This document shows, in pieces, positions 10,716 through 31,391 of a stretch of DNA of 64,000 nucleotides; within the stretch, counting starts at the first letter, position 1, and each line of letters begins with the position of its first letter. This DNA comes from Methyloligella sp. (GTDB taxonomy: Bacteria > Pseudomonadota > Alphaproteobacteria > Rhizobiales > HXMU1428-3). Where the stretch lies: the NCBI GenBank assembly GCA_021604645.1, contig BQJJ01000002.1:124001-188000 (forward strand), given 5' to 3'. A model generated the notes under the pieces. That model saw only the letters and a list, made by a program, of their open reading frames with translations. It was not told the DNA's origin and ran no database searches. The position numbers were made by a program, and so were the translations under genes.

Positions 10716-12458
10716 CTAACGTTTCAAATCTGATTGAATACGAGCTAGAAGCGATAAATAAGATGGTAAAATATGCGTTGCAAAGAAACGAGCTTTCATC
10801 AACTTACCCGTTTTTAACTCTTCAGAAACGTCCGAACTTTTCTTTACTGCACAAAGAATTTTTATCCACATCCACCCTAAAAGCACTAAAGAGAAAAGTC
10901 GCAAATAGTCACTGGCAACAGTCTGTAAAACGACGGGCTCTTTCCTTAAACCGACAAGCTTAGATGTAATAGAATCTAGCGCATCTAAAGAATTTAAAAT
11001 CAATTGAGAAACATCGTCAATCTCAGCAAACTGTTGGGCTTCAAATATATCCGCTTCGATATGTTCAAATAATTGAAAAGGCAATTTCGCGTCATTTAAA
11101 AATATTTTACGAGTTATTAAATCTAGCGACTGAATACCATTTGTTCCCTCATAAATTTGTGTGATGCGAACATCTCGAACATATTGTTCCATACCCCATT
11201 CATGAATATAACCATGTCCACCAAATACTTGTTGGGCCATCACACATGATTCAAGACCAAAATCTGATAAAGCAGCTTTGATAATAGGAGTTACTAGAGA
11301 TACAAAATTAGAGGCCTCTTTCTGCTCTGCCTCAGAGGGGTGATAATCTCTTTTATCAAGTTCAAGGGCCGTCAATAAACACAAAGCTCTAGCAGCTTCA
11401 TTAACTGAGCTTATAGTCATTAACATACGCTTCACATCAGGATGACAAATAATTGGAGCAGGATTACTATCATCTAAACTTTGTCGACCTTGCTTTCTTT
11501 CCTGCGCGTAATCAGTCGCTTTTTGATAAGCAATTTCAGCAACCCCTAAAGCTTGTGTTCCTACAAAAAGGCGCTCAGTATTCATCATAGAAAACATAGC
11601 CTTAAGACCGCTGTGAGCATCACCAATTAACCAACCCGTAGCATCTTCATAATTCAAAACACACGTTGGTTGAGCATGAATACCCATCTTTGTTTCAATT
11701 CCACCAACAATTATTTTGTTTTTCTCTCCTATCTCACCATCAGTAGAAACAAAATATTTAGGCACTAAAAAAAGACTAAGGCCTCCACTACCACTCGGAG
11801 CACCTGGTAAACGAGCCAAAACAAGATGGATTATATTTCCACCAAAATCATGGTCACCTGAAGAAATAAAAATTTTTGTACCGTTAATTTTATAAGAACC
11901 ATCCCCATTTGGATTTGCTCGCGTCGTTACCAAACTAAGATCAGAACCTGCACCAGCCTCTGTTAGTGACATCACACCAGTCCACTCGCCACTTATTAAA
12001 TTAGGTAAGTATTTTTCTTTAATTTCATCTGTAGCGTATAGTTTGATAACCTCACATGCCCCTCTGGTTAACGCAGGAAACAAACCAAAAGACATATTAG
12101 ATGCAGAAATGATTTCATCTGTTAAAAACTGTAGAGCATGAGACAAACCTTGCCCCCCATACTCAACATCACCTGAAAGACTTGCCCAACCATTTTCAAC
12201 GAATTTTTTATAGGCTTCAGGAAAACCTGTTGGTGTTGTCACCTGACCATCATGAAATTTACAACCTTCAGCATCTCCCGTACTATTTAACGGAAGAAGA
12301 ACATTGTTACAAAATTTTTCACACTCACCTACAACACTAAGCATTAAATCTAAGTCCAATTCACTTAGTTTAGGAATTTCAGACATGCGCTGATCAAAAG
12401 AAAAAACTTCTGTAAGTAAGAATTTTACATCTTCAACTGGATAATTTAAATTTATCAT
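10716..12458 (-). CDS. Acyl-CoA dehydrogenase with C-terminal extension (DmdC-like)
   Basis: FAD enzyme introducing the alpha-beta double bond in acyl-CoA; electrons go to ETF, encoded just downstream. 580 residues, longer than the usual 380, which fits the subfamily carrying an extra C-terminal domain (3-methylmercaptopropionyl-CoA dehydrogenase DmdC and relatives). Visible motifs: GVMSLTEAGAGSDLSLVTTR (flavin/substrate contact), QQVFGGHGYIHEWGMEQYVRD, and IYEGTNGIQSLDLI, in which the Glu is the expected catalytic base. The last 110 residues are the extension. It is 12 bp behind the dehydrogenase/hydratase fusion gene, so cotranscribed. Whether the true substrate is a fatty acyl-CoA or methylmercaptopropionyl-CoA cannot be decided from sequence. 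Confidence 0.9.
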   Translation of the reverse strand: MINLNYPVEDVKFLLTEVFSFDQRMSEIPKLSELDLDLMLSVVGECEKFCNNVLLPLNSTGDAEGCKFHDGQVTTPTGFPEAYKKFVENGWASLSGDVEYGGQGLSHALQFLTDEIISASNMSFGLFPALTRGACEVIKLYATDEIKEKYLPNLISGEWTGVMSLTEAGAGSDLSLVTTRANPNGDGSYKINGTKIFISSGDHDFGGNIIHLVLARLPGAPSGSGGLSLFLVPKYFVSTDGEIGEKNKIIVGGIETKMGIHAQPTCVLNYEDATGWLIGDAHSGLKAMFSMMNTERLFVGTQALGVAEIAYQKATDYAQERKQGRQSLDDSNPAPIICHPDVKRMLMTISSVNEAARALCLLTALELDKRDYHPSEAEQKEASNFVSLVTPIIKAALSDFGLESCVMAQQVFGGHGYIHEWGMEQYVRDVRITQIYEGTNGIQSLDLITRKIFLNDAKLPFQLFEHIEADIFEAQQFAEIDDVSQLILNSLDALDSITSKLVGLRKEPVVLQTVASDYLRLFSLVLLGWMWIKILCAVKKSSDVSEELKTGKLMKARFFATHILPSYLSLLARIQSDLKR

Positions 12459-12470
12459 TATTCTACCCTC

Positions 12471-14753
12471 CTAATTTTTTAGTTTTTTACCAGTTGAAAT
12501 CATATGAGATATACGCTCAGCTGCTGAATTGGTGCGAATAAGTTCCAAGAAATTCTTTCGCTCTAAACCCAAAACATCCGCTTCTTTAATCTTTGAGTTC
12601 TCCAAAAAACTAACAGCTAGCAAACTACAAATAGCCTTGACCATCTGCTTTTCATAAGGAGAAAAACGATCATCAGAATGATAGGTCTCCAAATATTTTC
12701 GACAAGCACTTTCATCCTCAATGTTGATCTTCAACTCTTGAGGCTTTATAGGTTCATAATTTTCTGCGAGAGAAAGTGCGGTCCGTTTTGCATCACTCAG
12801 AAGACGGTCTTTATTCATTGTTATCAAGTCTGAAGAACTTAACAGTCCTATACTTTTTGCATGATCAGCACAATTTGATGCATTAGCCGTTAATAAATAC
12901 TCAATAATTTTTTCAAAAGCTGGACGCCAATCCGCTCCATTTTCAACGGGATCAGTAAAGCGCAAAATAAGCTCTTTAACTCCTCCCCAGCCTGGCAATA
13001 ATCCAACCTGAGTTTCAACAAGGCCAGCTTTTAATTCTGCATGAGCTTGTATTGCATCACAATGCAATAACAACTCACACCCCCCACCCAAAGCAAATCC
13101 AGATGCGGCACCAACAACAGGTATAGATGAATATTTAACCTTGTCGAAAACTCGTTGACCCTTTTTAAGAAAAAGCTCGAGCTCATCCCATTTTTTGTTT
13201 TTTGAAAGCTCCAAGAGTAATTTTAAATTAGCTCCAGCGCTAAAATAGTCCTGGTGCCCTGTAATAACTAAACTTTTAAAATCGCTCTGGGCAATTTTTA
13301 TTGCCCTCTCTAAGTCCTCAAATAAAGCAAAATCGAACGCATTCATTTTTGTGTACAATTCCAAACAAGCAACACCATCCTTTAAATCATATAAACGACT
13401 ACTTTTTGTCTCCTGCAGAAATTGCCCCTTACAAAACAGGTCTTTCAGAACAAAAACTCCTTTGGGTGGTGTGATAGTTTTGCGAGTATTATCAGGCAAC
13501 AAACACTCTAAATGACAATCTTTAGAAAAATAAATCCCACCTTGTTTACAGGCTTGTTTTAAAAAGGGTGCAACATTCAAGTTTCTTTCTTCCAAAGCCT
13601 CGACAACCCATTGCACTCCCAGGTTATCAATCATTTTAAATGGCCCAATACCCCACCCATAACCAAAACACATAGCGTCATCGACATCTTGAGGAGAACT
13701 GGCAATCTCTGGAATTAAACTCGCTGCGTAATTGAGAACTTTCAACATAACCAAGGCTGCAAACTTTGCGCCTTCACTATCATGATCTAATAACAAACGT
13801 AGCTTTTCAACGTTAACCAAAGGCCAACTATAATCATGCTTTTGAAAGCTCCTATATTCACCTGTACTTAAATCAATAACATCAAATGTCCCTGCCTTTT
13901 TATCAAGCCTGTAAAACCCCTTACCAGCCTTACGACCAAGCTTACCACTAGCAATCATGTTTGTTATCAATGCACAGTCAATATCAATCTCATGGATAAC
14001 ATCGTCACTCAATTTATCTTGCAGGGTCTTAACTAAAGTCGGTAACAAATCAACCCCGATTAAATCAGCCAAACCAAAAATAGCTGTTTTAGGAATTCCA
14101 AAAGGTTTCCCTAATAATTGATCAACTTCTTCGATATTCATATTAGATTTGATTGCTTCTTCAATCCCTACAGCTATCCAATAAGCACCAATACGGTTAG
14201 CTATAAAACCGGGGGTATCATTGCATTCAACGATTTTTTTACCCAAACCATAGTCTGCAAATTCAGTCACTAGACGGAAGACCTCGGGAGAAGTCTGCTG
14301 ACCCTTAACGACCTCTAAAAGGCGCATATGACGTGGAGGGTTAAAGAAATGAGTAATAAGAAAATGAGTTTTAAACTCCTCAGAGACCTCACTTAATAAA
14401 ACTTCGCTTGGAATCGTTGAGGTATTTGAAGATACAATGGTATGGGGAGATCTAATCTTATCGAGCTGACTATAAAGTGTCTGCTTAGCTTCAACATCTT
14501 CAATGATAGCTTCGATAATCCAATCTACTTTTGCTAGTTTATCAAAACTGTCTGTCAAACTTCCGCATTCGACCCTATCAGCAAATTCAGGCATCATAAA
14601 ACCAGACACCTTTTTTTGTTTTTCCACGCCACTTTCAGCAAGCTCTTTTGTTAAATCAAGCAAAAGAGTTTGAATGCCTGCATTTGCAAAATGAGCTGCT
14701 ATTCCGGCTCCCATAACACCAGCCCCTATGACAGCAACAGTCTTAGATTTCAT
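12471..14753 (-). CDS. Fused 3-hydroxyacyl-CoA dehydrogenase / enoyl-CoA hydratase (FadN/FadB-type)
   Basis: Bifunctional beta-oxidation enzyme, 760 residues, with the dehydrogenase first and the hydratase last, the reverse of E. coli FadB. Residues 1-300: Rossmann motif VIGAGVMGAGIAAHFANAGI, SSNTSTIPS, HFFNPPRHMRLLEVVKG with the catalytic His, and NDTPGFIANRIGAYW; a second HCDH C-terminal repeat follows (GYGWGIGPFKMIDNLG). From about 440: hydratase/isomerase crotonase fold with VVGAASGFALGGGCELLLHC (oxyanion hole) and VETQVGLLPGWGGVKEL. First gene of the minus-strand operon that continues into the acyl-CoA dehydrogenase and etfBA. The promoter faces the TetR gene at 15073 across two operator-like palindromes. 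Confidence 0.9.
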   Translation of the reverse strand: MKSKTVAVIGAGVMGAGIAAHFANAGIQTLLLDLTKELAESGVEKQKKVSGFMMPEFADRVECGSLTDSFDKLAKVDWIIEAIIEDVEAKQTLYSQLDKIRSPHTIVSSNTSTIPSEVLLSEVSEEFKTHFLITHFFNPPRHMRLLEVVKGQQTSPEVFRLVTEFADYGLGKKIVECNDTPGFIANRIGAYWIAVGIEEAIKSNMNIEEVDQLLGKPFGIPKTAIFGLADLIGVDLLPTLVKTLQDKLSDDVIHEIDIDCALITNMIASGKLGRKAGKGFYRLDKKAGTFDVIDLSTGEYRSFQKHDYSWPLVNVEKLRLLLDHDSEGAKFAALVMLKVLNYAASLIPEIASSPQDVDDAMCFGYGWGIGPFKMIDNLGVQWVVEALEERNLNVAPFLKQACKQGGIYFSKDCHLECLLPDNTRKTITPPKGVFVLKDLFCKGQFLQETKSSRLYDLKDGVACLELYTKMNAFDFALFEDLERAIKIAQSDFKSLVITGHQDYFSAGANLKLLLELSKNKKWDELELFLKKGQRVFDKVKYSSIPVVGAASGFALGGGCELLLHCDAIQAHAELKAGLVETQVGLLPGWGGVKELILRFTDPVENGADWRPAFEKIIEYLLTANASNCADHAKSIGLLSSSDLITMNKDRLLSDAKRTALSLAENYEPIKPQELKINIEDESACRKYLETYHSDDRFSPYEKQMVKAICSLLAVSFLENSKIKEADVLGLERKNFLELIRTNSAAERISHMISTGKKLKN

Positions 14754-14846
14754 TTTCCTTATTTCCTATTCTGCTAGCAAACCTAATGAACTCAATCAGT
14801 TAGCTTTCCAAAACAATTAAGCATAAGAAAAGCCCACAAACTAAAT

Positions 14847-14902
14847 ACATCGAACGTTCGTTGTAATTTTGGTGAATTTATGTATCAAACGTCCGTTGTA
14901 AT
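14847..14902. promoter_or_regulatory. Pair of TetR-type operators ahead of the acyl-CoA oxidation operon
   Basis: Two 21-bp boxes (14847-14867 and 14882-14902) match at 17 positions and are 35 bp apart start to start. Each has an AACG-NN-CGTT palindromic core (AACGTTCGTT and AACGTCCGTT) followed by GTAAT. They sit 95-150 bp before the first operon gene and face the divergent TetR gene, which is the obvious binder (inference). Confidence 0.65.
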
Positions 14903-15035
14903 ATCAAGTTAAAAAATCACAGCTCATTAATATTGCAACATTTGACGGAGAAAACTGGAAAGATGAAACCAGCTCAGTAGGCATTTCTACACTTTATATT
15001 TTAGGTTCATTAGTATAGACAAATGGTATCCATTT

Positions 15036-15057
15036 TAACGTTTATAACCTAACGTTT
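15036..15057. promoter_or_regulatory. Direct repeat of operator half-sites at the tetR start
   Basis: TAACGTTT occurs at 15036-15043 and again at 15050-15057, just before the TetR start codon. Each copy repeats the AACG arm of the upstream boxes, suggesting weaker autoregulatory sites. Confidence 0.4.
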
Positions 15058-15072
15058 GGTATAGGAATTATC

Positions 15073-15696
15073 ATGCCTGCTACAAAACAAAACTTGAATA
15101 CTCAAAACTCACAGAAAGGCACTTCAAGAAGAGAAAAAAGCAATCAAAAGCAAATTGACATATTAAAAAAATCAGCAAACTTATTTGCTAGCGATGGCTA
15201 CCATGCTACATCAATGCGCAAAATAGCTGAATGTGTTGGTCTGAGTGGCGGGTCTCTTTATTATTACATTGAATCAAAAGAGAAACTGTTTGTACAAATC
15301 AACGTTTACGCTCTAAGCTCAGCTAAAGAACGCATAGAAATAGCCATTTCTGAATTTGATGACCCCTGGAGTCGTTTGGAAGTAGCTTGTGTCGAATTGC
15401 TAAAAATTCAACTTGATCCTGATTCAATAACAATGCCTCTCATGAAGGACTTTCATACGATCCCTAATGAACTGCGACAAAAAATTATTAAAAGCAGGGA
15501 TGAATTTGAAGTGATTTTTTCAAATCTTATTAATGAACTAAATTTATCAGATAACATTGATAAGAATATCTATCGTATATTTTTGCTAACAATTCTAAAT
15601 AGCGCATCCAATTGGTTTAAATATAATGGACGTTTGAGCATTGAAGAAATTGGCAAACAAGTTTTGGAAATTTTCAGATTTAAATGCGAAACCTGA
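15073..15696 (+). CDS. TetR/AcrR-family regulator of the acyl-CoA oxidation operon
   Basis: 207-residue repressor. The N-terminal helix-turn-helix is at about residues 25-70 (ILKKSANLFASDGYHATSMR, then KIAECVGLSGGSLYYYIESK), preceded by a basic tail; the remainder is the helical ligand-binding/dimer domain. AGGA precedes the ATG at 15073. It is divergent from the acyl-CoA oxidation genes with shared operators, so an acyl-CoA-responsive repressor of the FadR/PsrA kind is likely (inference). Its TGA stop at 15694 coincides with the first three bases of the insertion-sequence end TGACCTGCGCCCC, so the original C-terminus has probably been replaced by the insertion; the fold appears complete. Confidence 0.85.
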   Translation: MPATKQNLNTQNSQKGTSRREKSNQKQIDILKKSANLFASDGYHATSMRKIAECVGLSGGSLYYYIESKEKLFVQINVYALSSAKERIEIAISEFDDPWSRLEVACVELLKIQLDPDSITMPLMKDFHTIPNELRQKIIKSRDEFEVIFSNLINELNLSDNIDKNIYRIFLLTILNSASNWFKYNGRLSIEEIGKQVLEIFRFKCET

Positions 15697-17571: not shown

Positions 17572-19548
17572 TTAACCTAAACCAATCCCTCGCTTTTGGG
17601 TGATATCCCAAGACACACTACGAGGCCTCATTACACCTGAAACAGCCTTTCCTCTTACTCGCTCTAATACAGGGCGCCAGGGTACAAGAGTGATGTCATG
17701 CCCTCGTTCAATCAAAGCGTATTTATTCAGCGCCAATAAAACAGGGCGCTTGTAAATGCCTTCAATTTTTTGACCCTGTTTTGTTTCAACAAAGTTGAAA
17801 TTGAGCTCTTTTGATAATACTGTTCCAGTGCTCCGCAACTCTAATTGTTGTAAGTTTTTCATGAACTCGCGCTTGGGGATAAATTCATCATTTTTAAATT
17901 TCCCATTGCCCTGTGCTACGAGCCAAGCCTGCCTGTCATTTAAAGCCGCGAGAACTTGTTTTCCAAAGTGAACATTCGAAAAAGACATATTATCATATTT
18001 ACTGATTATTTGATCCAACCAGGTAGGCCCAACATATGAAGGCAGCTGATCTAAGGGAAGATAAGAACTAACAGTTATAGTCAGTGGCTGCTGGCGTATG
18101 GTAGCTTGTTCATATTTCTTAGCCTTTTCAAGATAATCTTGCCCGATATTCCAGTTCCCATTTTGCGTGCGTTCCACCAAGCCTTTTCGTCGCAATGCTT
18201 CTAATCGACGATCATGCGTTTTTATAAATTCCTTTGACGCGGTTCCATCAAAGGTTTGATGATTTTCAAAACTATATATCCCGTCATTTTGGCTAGCGAT
18301 GTGGTATATGGTATGATCTATAATTCTCGACTCTCCAGACAGAGAAGATAGCTTAATAATCATACCTGGATCTGGTAACTCAATATCTTTCAACACACCA
18401 ATATTTGCATAGTGAATATAACCGTCGACACCATCAACCAACACATAGTTTTGATCCTTCAATTCATCGACAAGACCGAGTTTTAAAACTTTGCCTATTA
18501 CGTGATTATCTGTGTCTTTAGGATCAATAATACGAACCTCATTGGAAGATCGATTCAACCGTAAGATTCGCAAATCTTTCTGGATAAGGGCCATTGCATC
18601 AGATCGTTTTTCCAAATCTTGCAAGACAGGTTTCATTCGTGGAGATAAAGTCCAAAACTGATTTTCTTCTTGGTGAGCCAAACCTAACTTTTCCAGCACC
18701 TTCAATCGCCGCAAAAAAAACTGACGTCTTAGATCTGAACCTAATCTATAGTCAGGTAACCCAGATTGATTATTCTTATAGAACTGTAGGATCTCCCGAT
18801 CCAAACGAGTGAAACGTTCCAACTTAATTTCATGATTAAGCTTCGTTTCTAGTTCATACTCTGTTTGCGGTCCAAGTTCCAAAGTTATGAGGTTTTCCGC
18901 GCGTTGACGAAAACCATGACTGATATAATCACGGGCAATGACAAGATTATCACCTCGATCATCTTTGCCGCGCACAACAATATGCGTATGCGGATAACCA
19001 GTATCGAAATGATCAACCGCAACCCACTCAAGTTTGGTCTCCAAATCATGCTCAGCTTGGTGCATAAGATCACGAACAAACGGTTTTAGGTCTTTGAGTT
19101 TATGCCCATCTTCTGGCGAAACTATAAACCTAAATTGATGGCGATCATCTTTGCAATTTTCTAAAAAGGATTTGCCATCAACCTCATCTGAAATAGCATC
19201 ATAGAGCCTACCTTTTTCTCCTTCTTTGGTGACACCCCCACGCTGAATATAAGAAAGGTGCGCCCGCGCACTTGTCAACTGACCTGAACCAAATTTTGCT
19301 ATGCGCGCCCGCACCACAACACGGCGTTGTTGTGCATTAAACTGAGAGCTTACAGCCAAAGCCCCTGGGGCTCTCCCTCGACCAATGCGAGAACCTGTAA
19401 ATGTATATTTCCTAGCAGATAATTTTGTGGGACTTTGATTATGCCTTTTATTAGCTGACCTTAAAACTTTTTGAATATAGTTTGATTTTCCTGTTGCTTG
19501 TTTTGCTCTGTGTTTAGGAAGCTTCGGTTCAAACTCATCATCATTCAT
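17572..19548 (-). CDS. Conjugative relaxase/mobilisation nuclease with DUF3363 domain
   Basis: 658-residue DNA relaxase that would nick at an origin of transfer and lead the strand into a recipient. The N-terminal HUH domain covers about residues 70-260: SARAHLSYIQRGGV near the catalytic-residue region, HQFRFIVSPEDGHKLKDLKP, and the metal-binding motif VAVDHFDTGYPHTHIVVRGK with three histidines. A long DUF3363 C-terminal half follows. The N-terminal 70 residues are basic. Length and order match relaxases of alphaproteobacterial integrative elements, where the next genes upstream are a TraF peptidase and an excisionase-like protein, as seen here. The frame is intact although the surrounding transfer genes are lost or broken. 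Confidence 0.85.
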   Translation of the reverse strand: MNDDEFEPKLPKHRAKQATGKSNYIQKVLRSANKRHNQSPTKLSARKYTFTGSRIGRGRAPGALAVSSQFNAQQRRVVVRARIAKFGSGQLTSARAHLSYIQRGGVTKEGEKGRLYDAISDEVDGKSFLENCKDDRHQFRFIVSPEDGHKLKDLKPFVRDLMHQAEHDLETKLEWVAVDHFDTGYPHTHIVVRGKDDRGDNLVIARDYISHGFRQRAENLITLELGPQTEYELETKLNHEIKLERFTRLDREILQFYKNNQSGLPDYRLGSDLRRQFFLRRLKVLEKLGLAHQEENQFWTLSPRMKPVLQDLEKRSDAMALIQKDLRILRLNRSSNEVRIIDPKDTDNHVIGKVLKLGLVDELKDQNYVLVDGVDGYIHYANIGVLKDIELPDPGMIIKLSSLSGESRIIDHTIYHIASQNDGIYSFENHQTFDGTASKEFIKTHDRRLEALRRKGLVERTQNGNWNIGQDYLEKAKKYEQATIRQQPLTITVSSYLPLDQLPSYVGPTWLDQIISKYDNMSFSNVHFGKQVLAALNDRQAWLVAQGNGKFKNDEFIPKREFMKNLQQLELRSTGTVLSKELNFNFVETKQGQKIEGIYKRPVLLALNKYALIERGHDITLVPWRPVLERVRGKAVSGVMRPRSVSWDITQKRGIGLG

Positions 19549-19718: not shown

Positions 19719-20216
19719 TCACTTCCAAACCCAAAGTGGCTTGGCCACACCTTCGATATTTTGACGATTGATCGTTCCAAAATAACGGCTATCAAATGAA
19801 GTTTTATGGTCTGATAGGAGAAAAAACTCATCACTCTGGAGTACAAAACACCCCTGCCATTGGGGAAGTTTTCGTCCCTTTTGATCGTATTTTAAAGCCC
19901 CTGAAACAGCTTCTTTATTGATGAAAATGACATCACCAAAACGACAAATTTCATCGCTCTGCAGAGCAGCTATAGGCTTTAAAAGAGGCATGTTTACGGG
20001 CAAAACTCCAAGCTCATGAGCTTGTTTTTTGACATGAAATGGCAACCGAACAACGACAGTTTTTCCATGAGAAGGAGCCTCATTTACCACTCCGTAGAGC
20101 CCTCTTGGTACACTGTTGGAAGTGTTCCAAATGAGCTTACTTCGTAGATTTATGATCAAAGGAATACCCAGCAAACATACCCCCAAAAACATGCAAACCA
20201 GCGCCCTAATCCTCAT
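19719..20216 (-). CDS. TraF-like conjugal transfer S26 signal peptidase
   Basis: 165-residue inner-membrane serine peptidase of the S26C/TraF family, which matures and cyclises pilin in conjugation systems. One N-terminal membrane helix (ALVCMFLGVCLLGIPLII) is followed by the serine motif NTSNSVPRGLY, the catalytic-lysine stretch LLKPIAALQSDEICR, and the late box FFLLSDHKTSFDSRYFG. It overlaps the excisionase-like gene by 11 bp, implying one mRNA, and lies about 170 bp ahead of the relaxase gene. No pilus genes are in view, so its substrate is missing from the window. Confidence 0.85.
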   Translation of the reverse strand: MRIRALVCMFLGVCLLGIPLIINLRSKLIWNTSNSVPRGLYGVVNEAPSHGKTVVVRLPFHVKKQAHELGVLPVNMPLLKPIAALQSDEICRFGDVIFINKEAVSGALKYDQKGRKLPQWQGCFVLQSDEFFLLSDHKTSFDSRYFGTINRQNIEGVAKPLWVWK

Positions 20217-22834: not shown

Positions 22835-23203
22835 CTATTTATTTTCACATGCTGTTACTCTGATCATATCAACAAATGACTTTTGCAAACGCTCTGGCAA
22901 TTGACGCAAAGCTTTGAGTAACATTATTTCATTTGATGTTGGTTCTAACATTTCAACACCTTCATAGGTTTCCCTACATCCAGCAAAAAGAATCTCAACG
23001 GGAATTTCAAAAATTTGAGACAAAGCCCAAAGACGACCTGCTGATATACGGTTCGTCGCGTTTTCATATTTTTGTATTTGTTGAAATGTCACCCCAAGTT
23101 GTTCACCAATATAATGTTGCGAGTAACCTGCCAGACAGCGCTGCATACGCAAATTATGTCCAACAATACAGTCAAATCTTTGCATTTCTTGCTTACAGTT
23201 CAT
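22835..23203 (-). CDS. XRE-family helix-turn-helix repressor
   Basis: 122 residues, Cro/C1-type regulator. The DNA-binding domain spans about residues 12-70: VGHNLRMQRCLAGYSQHYIG, EQLGVTFQQIQKYENATNRI, SAGRLWALSQIFEIPVEILF. The C-terminal 40 residues are helical with LLKALRQLPERLQKSFVDMI. A GGAG site precedes ATG 23203. It is divergent from a second XRE gene, with a palindrome between them, an arrangement typical of switch regions in mobile elements. In alphaproteobacteria this family is often chromosomal too, so island membership is inferred from position. Confidence 0.85.
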   Translation of the reverse strand: MNCKQEMQRFDCIVGHNLRMQRCLAGYSQHYIGEQLGVTFQQIQKYENATNRISAGRLWALSQIFEIPVEILFAGCRETYEGVEMLEPTSNEIMLLKALRQLPERLQKSFVDMIRVTACENK

Positions 23204-23243
23204 AAAGGCTCTCCGTTCATGATCCTAAATAAAATATACAATA

Positions 23244-23256
23244 TACGATAATCGTA
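23244..23256. promoter_or_regulatory. Palindromic operator between divergent XRE genes
   Basis: TACGAT-A-ATCGTA, a perfect 6-bp inverted repeat around one base, 41 bp before the minus-strand XRE start and 65 bp before the plus-strand one. Likely bound by one of the two XRE proteins. Confidence 0.5.
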
Positions 23257-23320
23257 CGCAAGAAAATTTAACAATTGATACCGCTAGTGCTTGTACAACG
23301 TCAGCAAAAACACAAAGTTT

Positions 23321-23554
23321 ATGAGCAAAAGAAATATAGCGGGCCCTCGTATTAAAGAGGCACGATTAAAAGCCAATATGAACCAAGCGGACTTAGCCGC
23401 TGCCCTTTCGGTTGATTATGACATCACGTTAGACCGGTCTGATATTTCCGAAATAGAAACCCAAGTTCGCGGCATCAAAGACTATGAACTGGATGCTATC
23501 GCCCAGATTTTAGACGTGGATGTAACTTGGTTGCTGCGCGGAGAAGAGGCCTGA
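23321..23554 (+). CDS. Small XRE-family helix-turn-helix protein
   Basis: 77 residues starting at ATG 23321; the frame is open from 23291 but only this start gives the normal domain edge. Nearly the whole protein is one HTH_3 domain: PRIKEARLKANMNQADLAAA, then SVDYDITLDRSDISEIETQV and LDAIAQILDVDVTWLLRGEE. No ligand or protease domain. It precedes the kinase-helicase gene at 23788 on the same strand by 233 bp, so it could be the local regulator of the defence-like cassette (inference); no operator is seen directly in front of that gene. Confidence 0.8.
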   Translation: MSKRNIAGPRIKEARLKANMNQADLAAALSVDYDITLDRSDISEIETQVRGIKDYELDAIAQILDVDVTWLLRGEEA

Positions 23555-23787
23555 TTATTAGGTGTGCCTCTTAAAACACCTTGTTTTTAACCCATTTCTT
23601 TTGGGGTTAGTTTTTTTATCAAAGACCACTTTTCTGGACCGGACAGACCTAAATCAGTTAATACTATAATTGGCAAACAGTGTTCCTGAGCTGTTTTATA
23701 TATTGAAATATACATCGATTTTTTAAATTCTGTGGATAATAAGTAATTGCCCTCCCAGTTATTTAAAGATGTGATCAATATAAAAAT

Positions 23788-26700
23788 ATGAAAATTAAAA
23801 AACGGAAGTTACCAACACTCGACGATTTATTTGAATGTTATGATCATTACTTAGTCCCCCCCAATGATAACACATGGCAACCCGCTTTAGTTCAGGCACG
23901 AAGGCGAGACGATAGTGAATTTGTTCTAGTAAAATCCTGGCGAAAGACTGGAGCAGCAATTGATACGGACCTTCGAGACCTATGGAGACGAGAAGCTCTC
24001 CAAGCTGATCGCTTAAAATCGCGACCAGGCGCTGAAGAGCTTCTTGTACCAATAATTGAAACATCAGAAACACAAGATTCTTTCTATGCGGTGATGCCAG
24101 GAGAATGGACACCATTGAGCGTTAAGCTCCGTAATTGCACACAACAACATTGGCTTCGTAATTTAAACACTTTTTCGAACCGGCAATATTTATGGCGTAA
24201 CGTACGGAGATTATTTGATGGACTCAAACTCATTCATGATCAACGCGTTGTATATGGAGGCCTAAACGAACACTCAATCTACACAGCAAGTGACCATGAG
24301 ATTGATTTTCGAATTGGCGGCTTTGAATGGTGTGCGAATATGAATGAATCATCTGTTGGGCCTAAATCCAATATTGCCTTTTCACCAACAGATGACTTTG
24401 CCTCGATAGGAAGTATTGTTACTTCATTACTTAGAGGAGTAAACCATGATGATGAGGTAGATAGTATTCTCCCCCCCGATTTTTCTTTAAGTGAGCGCGC
24501 ACTGCTTCGAGCATTGACTAATCCAATTGAACCTGGCCATCTTGATCGACGCCGTATAGAAGAACTGCTAGTTGACGTCGAAAAAGACTTTATTGTTTCA
24601 GGCTGGGGAGAAAATGGGCGATATCTTTTGGGAATTCAGCTAAACGGCAATAGTTTATCCGAGGTGATAAGAAAAGCCTCTGACGGTCAAATTAATCTGA
24701 GGGATCGTCAAGAGCAATTATCTTTTATTAAGGCAGATATAGAAGCTGGTTCAGAAATTATTGTCTACTCAGAAAATGATGCTTGGCTTCTCGGGCAGTC
24801 ATTAGCATACAAACTCATCCCTGACGGAACCGATGATAAAAAATGGAAAGCAGCGAAAATCAACAAAGCACAACCACGCGACAAACTACCTTTCAGGAAT
24901 ATAGAACCTCGTTCATTTCCCTCAGGGGCAATTGAAATCGATCTATTGGCCAATATATCTTTCCGAATGAGAAATCTTGGAAGTCGCGTTAATGATTGGA
25001 CCTCATTGATAAAAAATGGGGATGAAAATGATGAACCAGAAACTTATGTCCGACTGGGAATGTTATTAACGGACGTGGTCCTAACAGTATCATCCGCAGT
25101 TTCAGCGATACCTGTAAAAATCGTCGAACGCAAAGTTGGGAAAATTCTACTGTGTGCCGCTGATGTTGATGAATTCAAAGGCCTCCGTTCTACACTACGT
25201 CTTAAAGAGCCCGCTCGAAACCTGCAGTGCATTTTCGAGCTTGAGGAAGATGAATATGACTGCACATGGACTTTACGGTCTTCAGCAACTATTGGAACTC
25301 GAAATACAGAGATTGTATCTGTAACCTTCGATAAGGCCATCACTAAATCCGGCCAACGATATTATCAATTTTTGATAAACGGAAAACTCCCTGATGATGA
25401 TAATCTATTTCTTTCCAAATCCCTTGATAGTAATCCTTATAGCGTAGTAAAACGCCGAACCAAGTTACTTGCTAATTTGAAAACACACAAAGAGTTGCTG
25501 AACACTTTAGACGACCCTGAATCTACTCTTAGTGAAACAGCTCGCCAGCCATTGGCTGAAGACCAAGAGTACAAGGAGATGGACCCTTCAAAACAACTTG
25601 CCCTTCAAACCATATGGCGTAAAACGCCCATGCAAGCTATCGTAGGCCCCCCTGGCGTTGGTAAAACACATCTACTCTCCGACTATACCCGCAGAATCCT
25701 AGAGGAAAATCCTGGCTCCCGTATTCTCGTTACAGCTCAAGGACATCAAGCTCTCGACAATGCTGGTCAAAAACTAAGTCACATGACTAGTAATTTAGCT
25801 AATAATAATGAACTAATGGTGGTCCGCTCACAGTCAGACCGTTCCCAAGCTAACAAAGAATTGTTTGCTTCAACTCATGCTCGCAATCTACTGGAATGTG
25901 TTGAAAAAAGTACTTTATTTCAACAAGCCCCTTCTGAACAGCAGAAAGCCTTAAAGGAATTACTTGAATTATCTCAATCCACTGACGAAAACACCAATAG
26001 TGACCGCGCAACTGAGTTACGTTCATTTGAAACCACAGTTATGCATTCAGCAGCTGTGCTGTTATCAACAACAAACTCAAGTGAGCTGGCACGTCTTATT
26101 GAGGATGGTGCCCTGTTTGATGAAGTGATCATTGAGGAAGCAGCGAAAGCAACAGGGCCAGAGCTACTTGCACCATTGCTTTTGTCAATGCAACGATTAC
26201 TGATTGGTGATCACAGACAGCTCCCAGCATTTGATAGCGAACGACTTTTGGATTTGTTGGAAGATCCTGACACCGTCGCGAAAATCCTAAAAGACAGTGA
26301 GAAAATAGCGGGTTCTTTGTTTCGTGATCATGGCCTTGAAAAACTCTTAGAAGTTTCAAGCGATGATGATCAATTGGCGCTCATATGTGATCAAGCCAAA
26401 TCTTTAGTTCTGTTATTCGCACGTTTTATAGAAAAAGATGAAAAGCGAAGTATTCTTTATCCTAAAGCTGCACGCCTGTCAGTTGAACTTACTGAACAGA
26501 GGCGTATGCATCCTGTCATTTGCGATCTTGTATCCAGTGTCTTTTATGACAATAAACTTGTGACAAGTATCTCAGCGAAAGAAAAGTTCAAGAAAACAGA
26601 CTTTCCAATAAATCATCTGTCCAGGCAAATTCCTAATACTCCGATCGTGTGGGTAGATCTGCCCTATATTCAAAAGGAGGGAGGTTGTGAGGAGTTTACA

Positions 26701-27255
26701 CCAAGATATCATAATCCAGCTGAACAGGATGTAGTACTTTCTATTATTAAACAAATGCAGCCTGCGAAACAAAACACACAAACTTCGATGGCGATATTAT
26801 CACCCTATAGACAGCAAGTTGACCGACTTAATCGCAAGATAAGGGATAAAGCTAACTCACTAGAATATTTAGATCATTTCCAGTCAGCTGCTTCGTCTGG
26901 CGCTTGGGCAGGAACGGTTGATGCATTTCAAGGGAGTGAGGCAGATGTGGTTATAGTTTCATTGGTGAGAAACAATGATAACTTTGGCAGATCTGCTTTG
27001 GGTTTCGTCAGTGACCCAAGACGTATGGGTGTGCTTCTTAGTCGTGCAAAACATCAGCTTATTCTTGTAGGTAGTTATGATTTTTTTCAAGCTCAAGCGA
27101 GACGTTTTTCACAAACTCAGAATGATAAAACAGGAGCAGGCTGCATTCCTGACCTAATGGATAAATTAAAAAGCCTTCGTAAAGGATCCGATTCTTCTAC
27201 TCCGCCTAAATTTGTTATTGTACCTTCATCAAGCTTTACTGGAGAGCAGCTATGA
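23788..27255 (+). CDS. mkoA: Mokosh type I MkoA-like protein: kinase-like domain fused to SF1 helicase
   Basis: 1155 residues. Residues 35-215 have a protein-kinase-like fold: FVLVKSW with the ATP-lysine K49, helix-C Glu near E69, GLKLIHDQRVVYGGLNEHSI in the catalytic-loop position, and DDFASIGSIVTSLLRG as helix F. The HRD Asp and the DFG Asp are not conserved (YGG at 156-158; IGGFE at 176-180), so it looks like a pseudokinase. From about 600 comes a Upf1-like (COG1112) superfamily 1 helicase: IVGPPGVGKTHL (Walker A), DEVIIEEAAKATGPELL (Walker B), LIGDHRQLPAF, LTEQRRMHPVICDLV, and GTVDAFQGSEADVVIVSLVR with PRRMGVLLSRAKHQL. Its stop overlaps the PLD nuclease start (ATGA). STK-helicase plus PLD nuclease is the published composition of type I Mokosh anti-phage systems. 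No clear ribosome site precedes ATG 23788. Confidence 0.8.
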   Translation: MKIKKRKLPTLDDLFECYDHYLVPPNDNTWQPALVQARRRDDSEFVLVKSWRKTGAAIDTDLRDLWRREALQADRLKSRPGAEELLVPIIETSETQDSFYAVMPGEWTPLSVKLRNCTQQHWLRNLNTFSNRQYLWRNVRRLFDGLKLIHDQRVVYGGLNEHSIYTASDHEIDFRIGGFEWCANMNESSVGPKSNIAFSPTDDFASIGSIVTSLLRGVNHDDEVDSILPPDFSLSERALLRALTNPIEPGHLDRRRIEELLVDVEKDFIVSGWGENGRYLLGIQLNGNSLSEVIRKASDGQINLRDRQEQLSFIKADIEAGSEIIVYSENDAWLLGQSLAYKLIPDGTDDKKWKAAKINKAQPRDKLPFRNIEPRSFPSGAIEIDLLANISFRMRNLGSRVNDWTSLIKNGDENDEPETYVRLGMLLTDVVLTVSSAVSAIPVKIVERKVGKILLCAADVDEFKGLRSTLRLKEPARNLQCIFELEEDEYDCTWTLRSSATIGTRNTEIVSVTFDKAITKSGQRYYQFLINGKLPDDDNLFLSKSLDSNPYSVVKRRTKLLANLKTHKELLNTLDDPESTLSETARQPLAEDQEYKEMDPSKQLALQTIWRKTPMQAIVGPPGVGKTHLLSDYTRRILEENPGSRILVTAQGHQALDNAGQKLSHMTSNLANNNELMVVRSQSDRSQANKELFASTHARNLLECVEKSTLFQQAPSEQQKALKELLELSQSTDENTNSDRATELRSFETTVMHSAAVLLSTTNSSELARLIEDGALFDEVIIEEAAKATGPELLAPLLLSMQRLLIGDHRQLPAFDSERLLDLLEDPDTVAKILKDSEKIAGSLFRDHGLEKLLEVSSDDDQLALICDQAKSLVLLFARFIEKDEKRSILYPKAARLSVELTEQRRMHPVICDLVSSVFYDNKLVTSISAKEKFKKTDFPINHLSRQIPNTPIVWVDLPYIQKEGGCEEFTPRYHNPAEQDVVLSIIKQMQPAKQNTQTSMAILSPYRQQVDRLNRKIRDKANSLEYLDHFQSAASSGAWAGTVDAFQGSEADVVIVSLVRNNDNFGRSALGFVSDPRRMGVLLSRAKHQLILVGSYDFFQAQARRFSQTQNDKTGAGCIPDLMDKLKSLRKGSDSSTPPKFVIVPSSSFTGEQL

Positions 27256-29039
27256 GCATACACGTCGCTGTACCAGTTATACTGGCTCGCATGAAAGTGA
27301 TCGTTAATAAAGGCATTCATTGGAACCCTGTAGACTGGATGTTACTTTGGGCTCTACGTCAAAAACCGTCAACTGCATTATCACTCGCAACCGAAATTAA
27401 TCTGCCGAGACGTATCGTTATCGAGATAATCTGGAAACTTATGCGTTTTGGCTGGGTAGAAATGGTTGATAAAGAAAATTTTCGTGCGTCAGATGCAGGT
27501 ATTCGCGTTTTGCACATACCTGACGGTTTGCCTACATTAGAATGGTTAGATCAGACTACTGTGCATGCTGTTATAGAACCAACTGAGAAGCAGGTCTGGC
27601 CAAGTTCAGAAGTTATTCTCAGACATGGCAGTGAACTGCAAGTGCTTGAAAAAAAATATGAAATAAGGAAGTTAGATTGTGATGGATATGTTAAACTAAA
27701 GTATGGGGAACTGGAGAAAGTTGCAGCAGCTTGTCTCAGAAACCCAGATGAAGAATTAAAAATGGTTGTTCCCGAGGGAGTTAAAATAGACCTTCGATAT
27801 CTCATTGTTGATGTTAATAATGGCGAATGCCACGGATTGCCCGAAAACACTCCTAATTTACTATTAGATGATGTTCGAAAAACTGCTAAGAAAAAGAATA
27901 AAGGTACTGTCACTCAACAAAGAGAGTTGCAACCACCAACCCCCAAGCCAGCGATAGAAGGCATTGCGATAGATGATGTAGATATTCTTCTTGACGGTGC
28001 AAGTCATCTGGAAAAGATTGAAGAAATTCTTCGCAAATCGCGACATCGAGTTATCATACATTCAACTTTTCTCAGCTTGGATGGGTTCCAAAGCTTACAA
28101 GAAAGTCTTCGTATTGCAGTTAGAAAAGGAGCTCGCATTGATATTCTTTATGGAGCTGATCATGATGAAAGTACTCGTCAAAAGAATTTTTCTGTAGCAA
28201 GTGGCATAAGTAAGATAATCGCTGCTGACCCCATTTTACAGCAGAATGTCTTCATGCATATGGCTACAACAAAATCGCATGCCAAACTGCTTTTAGCTGA
28301 CACGGGCAAACCTGATTCATATACTGCAATTGTTGGATCCTGCAATTTCCTTCGTAGTCGCTTTGATCGTGTAGAAGCCTCAATTGTGCTGCATGACAAT
28401 CGTGTGATCGCAGATATTCTCAACGAGATCTGTGATATGTGTTTTGCAATAACACCACCGTCGAGATTAGTTAGAGACCTGAAGGGTATCGCAATATTGA
28501 TTGAGCAAAAAGCCGGGCCAGCTGGCGATGCATCCATTAGCTTGATTCTAGGCAATAATCATGGTGACCTGATACGTCGAGCTCGAGATGAAGCTCAATC
28601 AAGTATTGAGGTGGGCTGTGATTTTTTCGGTCAAGCAGGGGAGGTCAAAACATTAATTCCTTTGATGACTGCTGGCAGAAGTGGCATAAAAAGCCGAATA
28701 ATGTTTTCTAGCCCCAAATCACCCGTCTCTGAAGAAGATTTAAGTGACCTCTCCTTTTTAGCAGAAGAAAAAGGTGTAAAAATTTCTTTGCTCGATGGAG
28801 TTCTGCATGGGAAATTTCTTATCTGGGATGATAATGATGTTGTGATTACGAGTCTTAATTGGTCATCCGCTGGTACACGGCGTGATAATCCATGGGGCGA
28901 AATTGGGATCCATATTCACAAGCCTGGCATTGGCATCAAATTTAGAAAATGGCTTACGTCTAGTCTTGAGGCTGCCCGATTAGCTCGCTTATCAAAACAA
29001 CAGCGCTATCGCAATCGAAAACGGCGTAAGCGTAAATAA
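27252..29039 (+). CDS. mkoB: Mokosh type I MkoB-like phospholipase D-family nuclease
   Basis: 595 residues. An N-terminal winged helix (about 25-85; LRQKPSTALSLATEINLPRR) is followed by a linker and two PLD half-sites: HAKLLLADTG...GSCNF starting near H342 and HGKFLIWDDNDVVITSLNW near H519. Both carry the HxKxxxxD signature, so a complete two-fold active site can form; in the second the usual GS is TS. Such enzymes cleave phosphodiester bonds of nucleic acids. GGAG lies just before ATG 27252 and the gene overlaps mkoA by 4 bp, so the two products are made together. In Mokosh the helicase and the PLD nuclease act jointly against phage; the target here is not known. The C-terminus is strongly basic. 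Confidence 0.8.
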   Translation: MSIHVAVPVILARMKVIVNKGIHWNPVDWMLLWALRQKPSTALSLATEINLPRRIVIEIIWKLMRFGWVEMVDKENFRASDAGIRVLHIPDGLPTLEWLDQTTVHAVIEPTEKQVWPSSEVILRHGSELQVLEKKYEIRKLDCDGYVKLKYGELEKVAAACLRNPDEELKMVVPEGVKIDLRYLIVDVNNGECHGLPENTPNLLLDDVRKTAKKKNKGTVTQQRELQPPTPKPAIEGIAIDDVDILLDGASHLEKIEEILRKSRHRVIIHSTFLSLDGFQSLQESLRIAVRKGARIDILYGADHDESTRQKNFSVASGISKIIAADPILQQNVFMHMATTKSHAKLLLADTGKPDSYTAIVGSCNFLRSRFDRVEASIVLHDNRVIADILNEICDMCFAITPPSRLVRDLKGIAILIEQKAGPAGDASISLILGNNHGDLIRRARDEAQSSIEVGCDFFGQAGEVKTLIPLMTAGRSGIKSRIMFSSPKSPVSEEDLSDLSFLAEEKGVKISLLDGVLHGKFLIWDDNDVVITSLNWSSAGTRRDNPWGEIGIHIHKPGIGIKFRKWLTSSLEAARLARLSKQQRYRNRKRRKRK

Positions 29040-29555
29040 TAAAGTACTTTCTTTAGTAACAAGCCCCAATCGTCTATCAAAAATTGAAGCTGCAATTCTC
29101 CCATATGCTCAGATTCAATTTCAGGTTTTTGAAGGTCACACTTGTGATCACGCCAACTTTTATTGTAGTCAATGTCGGTAATGAGCACCTTCTGGTCCGA
29201 TCTTACCTATGTTCAAAATATCTACTCCCCTCTAAAACTGATTTGCTCATACAAAAATCATAACCTACCCTTTTATTTAAAGAAGTATTGGACTTTTATT
29301 TTAGGGGTTTTAAAAATATTTTCAGAACAGTATTTTCTTTTTAAATTTGTGCAACATTTTGTGTAACAAAATGTACAACAAACAACATCTGGAAAGGAAT
29401 ATATTAATTAAAAACAGCAACTTAAGCATCTTCCATTTTAAAACATCAATCCCTCCCTCTCCGCCATTATCTAAACTAAGCCCACAAAAAAGCCCCCATC
29501 ATAAAATGCTGAGAGCTAAAAATATTTTGAAGAATTAATAAACTGGCTAGCCAGC
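29040..29555. other. AT-rich right flank of the island
   Basis: 515 bp without a supportable gene. The first 150 bp read on the minus strand give about 45 codons of protein-like sequence (ITDIDYNKSWRDHKCDLQKP) that could be the worn end of a lost gene. The palindrome at 29354-29374 is the only clear structure. Confidence 0.4.
29354..29374. promoter_or_regulatory. 21-bp palindrome in the island flank
   Basis: ACATTTTG-TGTAA-CAAAATGT, a perfect 8-bp inverted repeat, flanked by further TTGTG/CAACA repeats. Operator or recombination site; no partner gene is obvious. Confidence 0.35.
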
Positions 29556-30650
29556 TTACCCTTCATCCAACCGCTTCAGGAACTCAATACGATCTCTCAC
29601 TTGCGTTGCGCCTTCTCGGTGCGAGGCACTGATTTCACCTAGGTTATTCAGTGAGCGTTCAATGTTTCCGCTTTCAGCAAAAATGTCCTCAACCCGCTCA
29701 ACAATTTGCTTGTAATACTCGCCTTCTTTAGCGGATTGCTCTTGCGTAACATCAATGATGTTACCAAGCTCATCCAACGAGGCTTCAATATTAGAAATAG
29801 AGCCCTGTGTTTTACCAAGCGAGTCTTTCGTATCACTTGCTAATTTTTTCACTTCACCAGCCACAACAGAAAAGCCCTTGCCAGCCTCACCAGCCCGCGC
29901 TGCCTCAATCGTCGCATTCAACGCTAAGAGATTTGTCTGCCCAGTGATGTTATCAATTATAGAGAGAACCTGACGAAGCGAGTTCAAAGATTGGCTCACA
30001 TTGCCAAACTTCTCAGACAATTCATTCGATGCCCCCTCTCGCTGAGATGTGTCAACCGCATCATTGTTCGACATCGCATCACGAACATTATTTATCACAT
30101 CCCCAAAGCCAGAAACTTCAGAAACAACACCCTCAATCTGTTGAGAGGCATTCAGATAATGCGCAATATCATCAACAACTTCACGGCGCATACCGTTCAG
30201 CATCTCAACCTGATTAAGTTTTCGGCGCGTGAAATACTCAAAAAAGCTCGCATAATGAATTGGAAAATTATCAATCAGATCATCTTCATATGAATGATCA
30301 ACATCAGAAAAGAAAGCAAGCGCCACCAGCGTCTGGTTAATGTTCACCCCAAGCAACTCATCACCCCGGGCAATATCACAATAAAAAGTGATAACCTCAG
30401 CCTCGGTATCAATACCGGCAATCGAGCGAACAAAAATTTCACCGCCAATTTCAACACCGCACGTTCTATTCTGCAGCGCATCCATAAGCTGTTCAGGGTC
30501 CACCCCTAAACTTGTTGAAAGCGCTGTCACAAGTGATATCACTTCACCCGTGTTCGGCTCAATCACAGAGGTCACAGTTCTCTTATCAATATCCGCATCA
30601 ACAACAACATATTTTTGATTAGTCTTTTGGAAATTATGGCTGCGCATCAC
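29556..30650 (-). CDS. FIST-C / methyl-accepting signalling part of a split FIST chemoreceptor
   Basis: 364 residues, soluble. Residues 15-115 are the C-terminal half of a FIST sensory domain ([20 protein letters not shown], then [20 protein letters not shown]), and 150-364 form the receptor signalling domain with [20 protein letters not shown] then [15 protein letters not shown]. It has no plausible ribosome site of its own. It lies in the same reading frame as the FIST-N gene upstream, separated by a single TAA plus seven sense codons, so the two are one gene split by a nonsense codon. The intact protein would be a cytoplasmic chemoreceptor of about 610 residues sensing small ligands such as amino acids (family knowledge). 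Confidence 0.8.
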
Positions 30651-30671
30651 ACTATAACGCTGACCAGGAGC

Positions 30672-31391
30672 TTACTTCACAAACGCCACCACAGCGTGAT
30701 TTTCAAGTTGTTGCCGGCCATCAAACAATTTCGTCGTCACAAAATCCAATTTACCGCCAGCAGACCCACCAATGAAAAGACAAGGAAATTGATGACTATT
30801 GTAAACAGCTTCCATGAAATAGTTCTCAGAAAAAGAAAGACCTTCAATAAAGGTCAATGCAAAGCTGTCTTTAGCATCCAGTTTAAAAGAAGGATTAACC
30901 TGCCTGAGAGATGCGGTAATTTTCTCCACCCGCGCATCACGGCTCATATCACTCTGACCAGAGCGCAAATCTTCACAAGATAGCGGAACAGAAAAAACTT
31001 CAACAGATTGCAACAATTGCGGAGAAAAGATTTGCAAAACAACAGAGCGCCATTGATCCGGTGTATCACAATAAACTGTGCTGCCTTCATTTGTGCAAAG
31101 CTCACCAGCTGTTGTAGTGGCAATCACTTTAGAAGCCCCTGCCAACTGGTTAATTTTACCAACAACATCACCAAAATTCACATTCGGAGAGACAAATGCA
31201 ATAACAAGGGAAGCTTCCTGTCCATCAAAACGAAAATCATCTCTAGAAACATTCCCTAAAAAATCATCTGTTAAAATAGAGCGCACCGGAGGCTGATCTA
31301 TATTTACGTCCTTAATAGAAAGGTGTTCAGCTTCACTTTGCTCCACAGGCTCATCATCCATGGCTGGTGAATTTTTAAATCGTGACAGCAT
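30672..31391 (-). CDS. FIST-N domain part of a split FIST chemoreceptor
   Basis: 239 residues from ATG 31391 (GAGG site). After a disordered acidic N-terminus, residues 50-239 form the FIST-N ligand-sensing domain: SLVIAFVSPNVNFGDVVGKI, VIATTTAGELCTNEG, FALTFIEGLSFSENYFMEAV, and CLFIGGSAGGKLDF. The end VVAFVK is followed by TAA and then, in the same frame, by [14 protein letters not shown] and the FIST-C half. Only one nucleotide change would restore the fusion. If not read through, this part would be a sensor without its output domain. Confidence 0.8.
   Translation of the reverse strand: MLSRFKNSPAMDDEPVEQSEAEHLSIKDVNIDQPPVRSILTDDFLGNVSRDDFRFDGQEASLVIAFVSPNVNFGDVVGKINQLAGASKVIATTTAGELCTNEGSTVYCDTPDQWRSVVLQIFSPQLLQSVEVFSVPLSCEDLRSGQSDMSRDARVEKITASLRQVNPSFKLDAKDSFALTFIEGLSFSENYFMEAVYNSHQFPCLFIGGSAGGKLDFVTTKLFDGRQQLENHAVVAFVK

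What the first reader, a model, noticed from the sequence alone, without database searches (positions are those of the whole stretch)
23788..29039. Type I Mokosh-like anti-phage cassette on a decayed conjugative island
A kinase-like/SF1 Upf1-type helicase gene overlaps by 4 bp a two-HKD PLD nuclease gene. That is the published composition of type I Mokosh (MkoA plus MkoB). It lies next to XRE repressors, a relaxase module and IS remnants, a typical defence-island setting. Both frames are intact although nearby mobile genes are broken, suggesting selection to keep the cassette. The gene content is seen; the Mokosh assignment rests on domain architecture alone.
Basis: partly seen in the sequence, partly recalled or inferred. 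Interest (0 to 1): 0.85.

Follow-up and report, generated by a model that had tools for sequence, protein, structure and literature searches.

The report
Mokosh phage-defence pair, dead kinase
The two overlapping genes look like a bacterial virus-defence pair called type I Mokosh; the part usually described as a protein kinase lacks the residues a kinase needs to work, and comparison with relatives suggests that different branches of the family may rely on the kinase or on the nuclease.

Summary
Window 23788-27255 (1155 aa) and 27252-29039 (595 aa) overlap by 4 bp. PADLOC calls them MkoA (718.6 bits) and MkoB (250.2 bits), nearly full length, far above type II MkoC (74.9 and 39.2). The cassette is a type I Mokosh.

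MkoB keeps His and Lys of two HKD motifs in 80 of 80. A sister branch under the same PADLOC profiles differs: catalytic kinase residues in 15 of 15, a partner with one HKD (8 of 14) or none (6 of 14); those six loci also carry a PP2C phosphatase gene. The branches separate with full support. Type I Mokosh may hold two effector styles; the window has the nuclease style.

The cassette occupies a variable slot: a close congener has other genes between the same flanks. Anti-phage activity was not tested. The cassette is an ordinary new member; the kinase/nuclease contrast is the interesting part.

The parts
23788..27255 (+). mkoA, 1155 aa: N-terminal pseudokinase, middle region, SF1 Upf1-like helicase
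   Evidence: PADLOC MkoA PDLC03920 718.6 bits, residues 19-1133 on profile 8-1103 of 1112; Pfam AAA_11/AAA_12
23788..24597 (+). kinase-fold domain of MkoA (about residues 1-270)
   Evidence: AlphaFold model of residues 1-301, pLDDT 88.6; the 50 Foldseek PDB rows shown are protein kinases or pseudokinases, PAN3 among them
24253..24261 (+). place of the HRD motif: reads YGG, catalytic Asp absent
24319..24327 (+). place of the DFG motif: reads GFE, Mg-binding Asp absent
25555..27117 (+). SF1 helicase core of MkoA (about residues 590-1110)
   Evidence: Pfam; model of residues 280-1155 matches UPF1, SETX, IGHMBP2, ZNFX1, Dna2
25645..25668 (+). Walker A GPPGVGKT
   Evidence: Lys in 80 of 80
27252..27255 (+). 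ATGA overlap of mkoA stop and mkoB start
   Evidence: the last four bases of MkoA are ATGA in MkoB's frame in 45 of 72 related loci, GTGA in a further 16
27252..29039 (+). mkoB, 595 aa: winged-helix-like N-terminus and two PLD repeats
   Evidence: PADLOC MkoB PDLC03922 250.2 bits, profile 6-592 of 610; PLDc_2
28278..28301 (+). first HKD motif HAKLLLAD
28806..28829 (+). second HKD motif HGKFLIWD
23291..23554 (+). small XRE-type HTH gene upstream of mkoA
   Evidence: ORF; weak HTH/control-protein profile hits; 93% DNA match in G002, whose copy has two extra bases inside the gene
22835..23203 (-). XRE-type HTH gene
   Evidence: PF01381
23242..23678 (.). left flank shared with G002; the cassettes differ after it
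   Evidence: blastn
29343..30363 (.). start of the right flank shared with G002
   Evidence: blastn
17572..19548 (-). MobA/VirD2-type relaxase with DUF3363
   Evidence: PF11843 E 1.5e-105; PF03432 20.2 bits, below its cut-off
19719..20216 (-). S26 (TraF-like) peptidase
   Evidence: PF10502
20554..21288 (-). RovC-like DNA-binding regulator
   Evidence: PF10074, PF20109
15810..16440 (-). IS3-type transposase remnant in three frames
   Evidence: tblastn

Best explanation
The cassette is a type I Mokosh anti-phage operon of the nuclease style. MkoA is the sensor and motor: its Upf1-like SF1 helicase binds and moves on RNA (or single-stranded DNA). Its N-terminal domain keeps the kinase fold but lacks the residues for ordinary phosphotransfer, so it most likely acts as a binding or switching module, as the PAN3 pseudokinase does in an mRNA deadenylase (role of PAN3 recalled). 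MkoB, with two HKD motifs that would form one PLD active site, is the effector nuclease, brought to or released on the nucleic acid that MkoA engages. Shown by sequence or model: gene pair, family profiles, overlap, helicase motifs, kinase fold without catalytic aspartates, two HKD motifs, co-inheritance. Inferred: complex formation, the nucleic acid cut, the trigger, protection from phage.
For: PADLOC profiles. An MkoA match beside MkoB in 77 of 80 named-genome loci, in 13 of 13 plasmid loci read, out of 50 records matched, and in two E. coli loci whose proteins hit the same profiles at 873-895 and 331-352 bits. MkoA and MkoB distances correlate at r = 0.97 over 80 loci (3160 distances, not independent). 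HRD and DFG Asp absent in 80 of 80; Walker A Lys and motif II EE kept in 80 of 80. HKD His and Lys kept in 80 of 80. 67 of those 80 rows come from a scan whose patterns were taken from the HKD region, so that count is biased; of 19 MkoB rows not chosen that way, 17 show both motifs (L045 with Asn for the first Asp), L041 is truncated, and L155 has Gly for the second Asp. Model matches: kinases, UPF1/SETX/IGHMBP2/ZNFX1.
Against: No activity was tested. Some pseudokinases keep residual or unusual catalysis (recalled); Lys49 and Glu69 are kept here, Lys in 57 of 80 (Arg in 23) and Glu in 71 of 80. RNA versus DNA is not settled: Dna2 is also among the helicase matches. One review lists Mokosh, in a row that lumps many systems, with unknown mechanism (PMC12926258, passage), while another paper says it degrades viral transcripts (PMC11291487, passages). 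Control: at E 0.001 the profiles are loose. The MkoA profile rings in 13 of 14 control genomes and also hits an ordinary kinase in the window's own genome at 87.8 bits; the MkoB profile rings in 8 of 14. At E 1e-100 and 1e-20 they ring in 1 and 0 of 14; the window's scores are beyond both limits.
Confidence: 0.66

Rival explanations
1. MkoA is a working protein kinase of unusual chemistry; phosphorylation is part of the response and MkoB is a co-effector.
For: Kinase fold; Lys49 and Glu69 kept; Glu180 invariant in 80 of 80, so an acidic residue does sit at the end of the DFG place. The sister branch has conventional kinase residues.
Against: Both catalytic aspartates are gone in 80 of 80, and the catalytic-loop Asn in 79 of 80. 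No PP2C-like frame in any of 99 sequences (98 loci and the window), while 6 of 14 live-kinase loci with a visible partner have one.
Confidence: 0.1
2. The pair acts on DNA: MkoA loads on DNA ends or gaps and MkoB cuts phage or host DNA, in the manner of the helicase-nuclease Hachiman. (Not exclusive with the best explanation, which leaves single-stranded DNA open.)
For: Dna2 is among the fold matches. Outside its own family MkoB scores weakly with DISARM DrmC and NucT nucleases. Hachiman is described as a nuclease-helicase that detects DNA damage (PMC12278908, abstract start in the listings).
Against: The best sequence and fold matches are UPF1, its yeast form, SETX and IGHMBP2, known mainly as RNA helicases, though some also act on DNA (recalled).
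Confidence: 0.3
3. The cassette is a passenger on a mobile island with no defence role in this host.
For: MkoB not found in the other 7 genomes of the genus and 53 of the order that were searched; it sits in a swap slot.
Against: The tested helicase and nuclease motifs are intact and both frames are open over 5.2 kb.
Confidence: 0.15

Closest known systems
Type I Mokosh (MkoA + MkoB), E. coli-type branch
   Same: Gene order, profiles, pseudokinase residues, two HKD motifs, a relaxase gene nearby
   Different: 26-27% identity to the two E. coli MkoA read; overlap 4 bp here, 11 bp there by annotation
Type I Mokosh, live-kinase branch (cyanobacteria, actinobacteria, rhizobia)
   Same: Same gene order; the four MkoA and four partner proteins scanned hit the same PADLOC profiles
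   Different: HRD/DFG residues of a live kinase; partner with one or no HKD; PP2C third gene in 6 of 14 loci
Long NERD-type MkoA (PDLC03921)
   Same: Helicase half
   Different: About 1525-1660 aa in five loci; the three scanned with PADLOC also score PglW and kinase profiles; my MkoB profile found no partner in those 9-10 kb stretches
Type II Mokosh (MkoC)
   Same: Helicase and PLD parts
   Different: One fused protein (PMC11672841, passage); MkoC scores only 74.9 and 39.2 bits here
PAN3 pseudokinase
   Same: Dead kinase fold in an RNA-processing complex, among the fold matches (role recalled)
   Different: Eukaryotic, no fused helicase (recalled)

Membership tests
Type I Mokosh | MkoA profile match over most of its length | tested here: met
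   718.6 bits, 8-1103 of 1112
Type I Mokosh | MkoB profile match over most of its length | tested here: met
   250.2 bits, 6-592 of 610
Type I Mokosh | Helicase and PLD nuclease encoded by separate genes (PMC11672841, passage) | tested here: met
   Two frames with a 4-bp overlap
[quoted passage not shown]
   Fold met; catalytic HRD and DFG Asp absent. The same is true of the two E. coli loci read, so this does not exclude membership
Type I Mokosh | Protects from phage | not testable with these tools
   No bench test
Type II Mokosh | Single MkoC protein with helicase and PLD | tested here: not met
   Two genes; weak MkoC scores
Active eukaryote-like Ser/Thr kinase | HRD and DFG aspartates | tested here: not met
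   YGG and GFE
DISARM DrmC | DrmC profile at family strength | tested here: not met
   Best DrmC 30.1 bits in PADLOC; NCBIfam 33.9 against cut-off 133. DISARM partner genes were not searched for

The most novel reading that the evidence does not exclude
'Type I Mokosh' is not one mechanism. On one helicase sensor, one branch has a dead kinase and a two-HKD nuclease (window, E. coli and other proteobacteria), and another has a live kinase with a partner that holds one HKD (cyanobacteria, actinobacteria) or none (rhizobia), the last with a PP2C phosphatase added. Kinase and nuclease would then be alternative effectors or switches. Against a strict trade-off: a single HKD can still work in a dimer (recalled), so the eight one-HKD loci may have both activities; the six no-HKD loci are near relatives; the direction of change is not shown because the tree has no true root.
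Probability: 0.45. Interest if true: 0.66.

Novelty: new member of a known kind. Interest (0 to 1): 0.45.

Why it matters
A plain Mokosh member adds little. But a 2026 review still lists Mokosh among systems of unknown mechanism (PMC12926258, passage), and type I is described as having an STK domain (PMC11672841, passage). That domain lacks the catalytic aspartates in every MkoA of the window's branch that was aligned (80 of 80, and four more), and live kinases go with one or no HKD motif and in some loci a phosphatase. This says which residues to mutate first and warns against pooling the two branches in one model. Searches of the held papers for Mokosh with pseudokinase and with protein phosphatase gave 0 papers; the original Millman 2022 paper was not seen, so the point may be in print outside this library.

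Tried and rejected
Rejected: type II Mokosh, DISARM DrmC and other helicase-PLD systems. Rejected: a conserved HTH partner; against 80 loci the + strand HTH protein had no tblastn match and the - strand XRE protein one weak match. Rejected for the window: the NERD-type MkoA (196.8 against 718.6 bits). Led nowhere: a scan of genome contigs with the single MkoB protein found none, the alignment scan worked; Rfam gave no match in the window; no solved relative of MkoB at E 0.01.

Rows dropped before counts: from the 85-row MkoA set I had left out L041 and L043 (truncated N-termini), L102 (same genome as L048) and L069, L078, L099, L106, L130, L142, L145 (partial or missing MkoA); identical copies then reduced 85 to 80. 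L155 shows the same motif strings as L123 and may be the same genome. Many MkoA and MkoB rows were taken from stop to stop, so they can carry residues before the true start. In the helicase tree L179 was lost because my Walker A pattern missed it, and 34 pseudokinase rows were used, not all; the groups were gathered by searches from single members, which favours clustering. My first kinase-motif pattern for the live branch was wrong and gave no true match; an alignment replaced it. The PP2C profile was built from three of the six proteins that it then found; all six are also named PP2C in their records.
Full report
Observation. Two open frames overlap by ATGA: 23788-27255 (1155 aa) and 27252-29039 (595 aa). 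In PADLOC the first hits MkoA PDLC03920 at 718.6 bits and the second MkoB PDLC03922 at 250.2 bits, both over nearly the whole profile; MkoC (type II) gets 74.9 and 39.2 bits. Pfam adds AAA_11/AAA_12 and PLDc_2.

Distribution. The window's genome has one copy. MkoB was found in 1 of 61 genomes, the window's own, when its genus and order were sampled, and MkoA in 1 of 8 genus genomes, again its own. With the MkoB profile 92 of 385 genomes of the class matched at E 0.001, but only two, the window's and G319, over most of the profile; the same search rang in 8 of 14 control genomes, so that limit is loose. In the phylum 5 of 398 matched at E 1e-20, three over most of the profile, with 0 of 14 controls; in the class of G502 1 of 369 at E 1e-30, G502 itself. 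G319 is of the window's class and its contig has the length of the Tistrella mobilis record, so the host is probably an alphaproteobacterium (Tistrella's class recalled). Among plasmids 50 of 72,556 records hold an MkoB relative; I read 13. In named genomes 126 stretches matched and the best 80 were kept. In E. coli, 6 of 5426 genomes gave a partial DNA match to a Gilliamella mkoA; I read two.

The pair as a unit. An MkoA match lies beside MkoB in 77 of 80 loci; of the other three, L099 and L142 begin close to a contig end and L106 has only a partial MkoB. In 72 loci with full MkoA its last four bases are ATGA in MkoB's frame in 45 and GTGA in 16. Pairwise distances of MkoA and MkoB correlate at 0.97 over 80 loci; related sequences are not independent, so this is descriptive.

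The kinase domain. A model of residues 1-301 (pLDDT 88.6, pTM 0.83) matches protein kinases: 1840 of 1999 PDB matches have E at most 0.001, and the 50 rows shown are kinases or pseudokinases, PAN3 among them. At the HRD place the window reads YGG and at the DFG place GFE. Over 80 distinct MkoA sequences no row has Asp at either place; the DFG Asp is Gly in 79 and Ala in 1, and the following Glu180 is invariant. L156 and L157 (E. coli), L154 and L155 agree. The model has a short strand just before GFE, as expected before DFG. Position 49 is Lys in 57 and Arg in 23; position 69 Glu in 71 and Gly in 9. This is a pseudokinase by residues; catalysis was not measured.

Helicase and nuclease. The model of residues 280-1155 (pLDDT 86.3) matches UPF1, SETX, IGHMBP2, Sen1, Dna2 and ZNFX1. 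MkoB keeps both His and both Lys in 80 of 80 and two full motifs (last residue Asp or Asn) in 79 of 80, L123 being the exception. 67 of those 80 rows came from a scan with HKD patterns, so I also looked at 19 rows not chosen that way: 17 have both, L041 is truncated, L155 has Gly for the second Asp.

A sister branch. The same MkoA profile also matches proteins with live-kinase residues: L175 in a genome of the window's order and 14 plasmid loci, read out of 18 records with at least 80% coverage. All 15 have the HRD Asp, the catalytic-loop Asn and the DFG Asp (DFG, DYG or DFA); Pfam scores L178 at 107 bits for Pkinase. L175's partner lies beyond its contig end; in the other 14 a partner gene follows. 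PADLOC, asked for four of these partners (L176, L178, L180, L181), calls all four MkoB at 142-311 bits; the other ten were taken by position and alignment. The partner has one HKD in 8 (five cyanobacterial, three actinobacterial) and none in 6 (rhizobia and relatives), and those 6 have a PP2C gene next in line; the 8 do not. No PP2C-like frame was found in 99 sequences of the window's branch (98 loci, some overlapping or without MkoA, and the window). In a helicase tree of 53 rows the pseudokinase (34), live (14) and NERD-long (5) groups each need one change, in 100% of 200 bootstrap trees. The root is a midpoint, so which state came first is not shown, and the groups were gathered by searches from single members. 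The six PP2C loci are close relatives and count as few events.

The site. G006 keeps the left genes (window 12064-15689) and the right gene (from 29556) with 7.7 kb of other DNA between, including an IS3-type transposase, a tyrosine integrase and a cation-efflux gene. G002 keeps the small HTH gene (23242-23678, 93%) and the right flank from 29343 but holds another set in place of Mokosh: a 181-aa protein with a sub-threshold deaminase-toxin match, a 778-aa protein with no Pfam or PADLOC hit at E 0.001, and an IS110 transposase. So the cassette occupies a swap slot. The relaxase and TraF-like genes to the left look complete, the IS3 transposase is broken. In the two E. coli loci a relaxase gene also lies a few kb downstream of Mokosh, and in L157 an integrase gene beside ssrA upstream.

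Function. My account is a helicase sensor with a pseudokinase regulator and a PLD nuclease effector. RNA is favoured as substrate by fold, not proven. In the held literature a review lists the mechanism as unknown (PMC12926258, passage), one paper says Mokosh degrades viral transcripts (PMC11291487, passages), the type I definition with an STK domain is in PMC11672841 (passages), a NERD domain is also listed for type I in PMC10952713 (passage), and the tandem inactive-plus-active kinase of PglW in PMC12839542 (passages). No held paper combines Mokosh with pseudokinase or protein phosphatase. The original description was not seen.

Verdict. As a cassette: a new member of type I Mokosh. As a family observation: the kinase/nuclease contrast between branches is, as far as these searches go, not described, and is directly testable.

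Noticed in passing
window 29556-31391 (-): A FIST-MCP (chemotaxis-type) gene is broken: an in-frame stop at codon 240 of the frame and 195 bp fewer than the uninterrupted 676-aa frame of G002.
   Followed up: partly
L065 11906-16651 (G002): In place of Mokosh: a 181-aa protein with a sub-threshold deaminase-toxin match (PF14424), a 778-aa protein that looks membrane-bound (by eye) without Pfam or PADLOC match, and an IS110 transposase. A candidate unknown two-gene system.
   Followed up: partly
L178, L179, L182, L186, L187, L189: Live-kinase MkoA, partner without HKD and a PP2C phosphatase form a three-gene set in rhizobia and relatives; a DUF3800 gene follows in L182, L186 and L187.
   Followed up: partly
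L180 7348-9117: The MkoB partner in Mycobacterium gallinarum carries a C-terminal S1 RNA-binding domain, a hint for RNA as substrate.
   Followed up: no
L168-L172: Long MkoA-type proteins of about 1525-1660 aa; the three scanned (L168, L169, L172) hit PDLC03921 and PglW profiles, and no MkoB of this type was found nearby.
   Followed up: partly
L043: Mokosh beside genes annotated nucleotidyltransferase, ThiF, Mov34/JAB and SAVED, resembling a CBASS operon.
   Followed up: no
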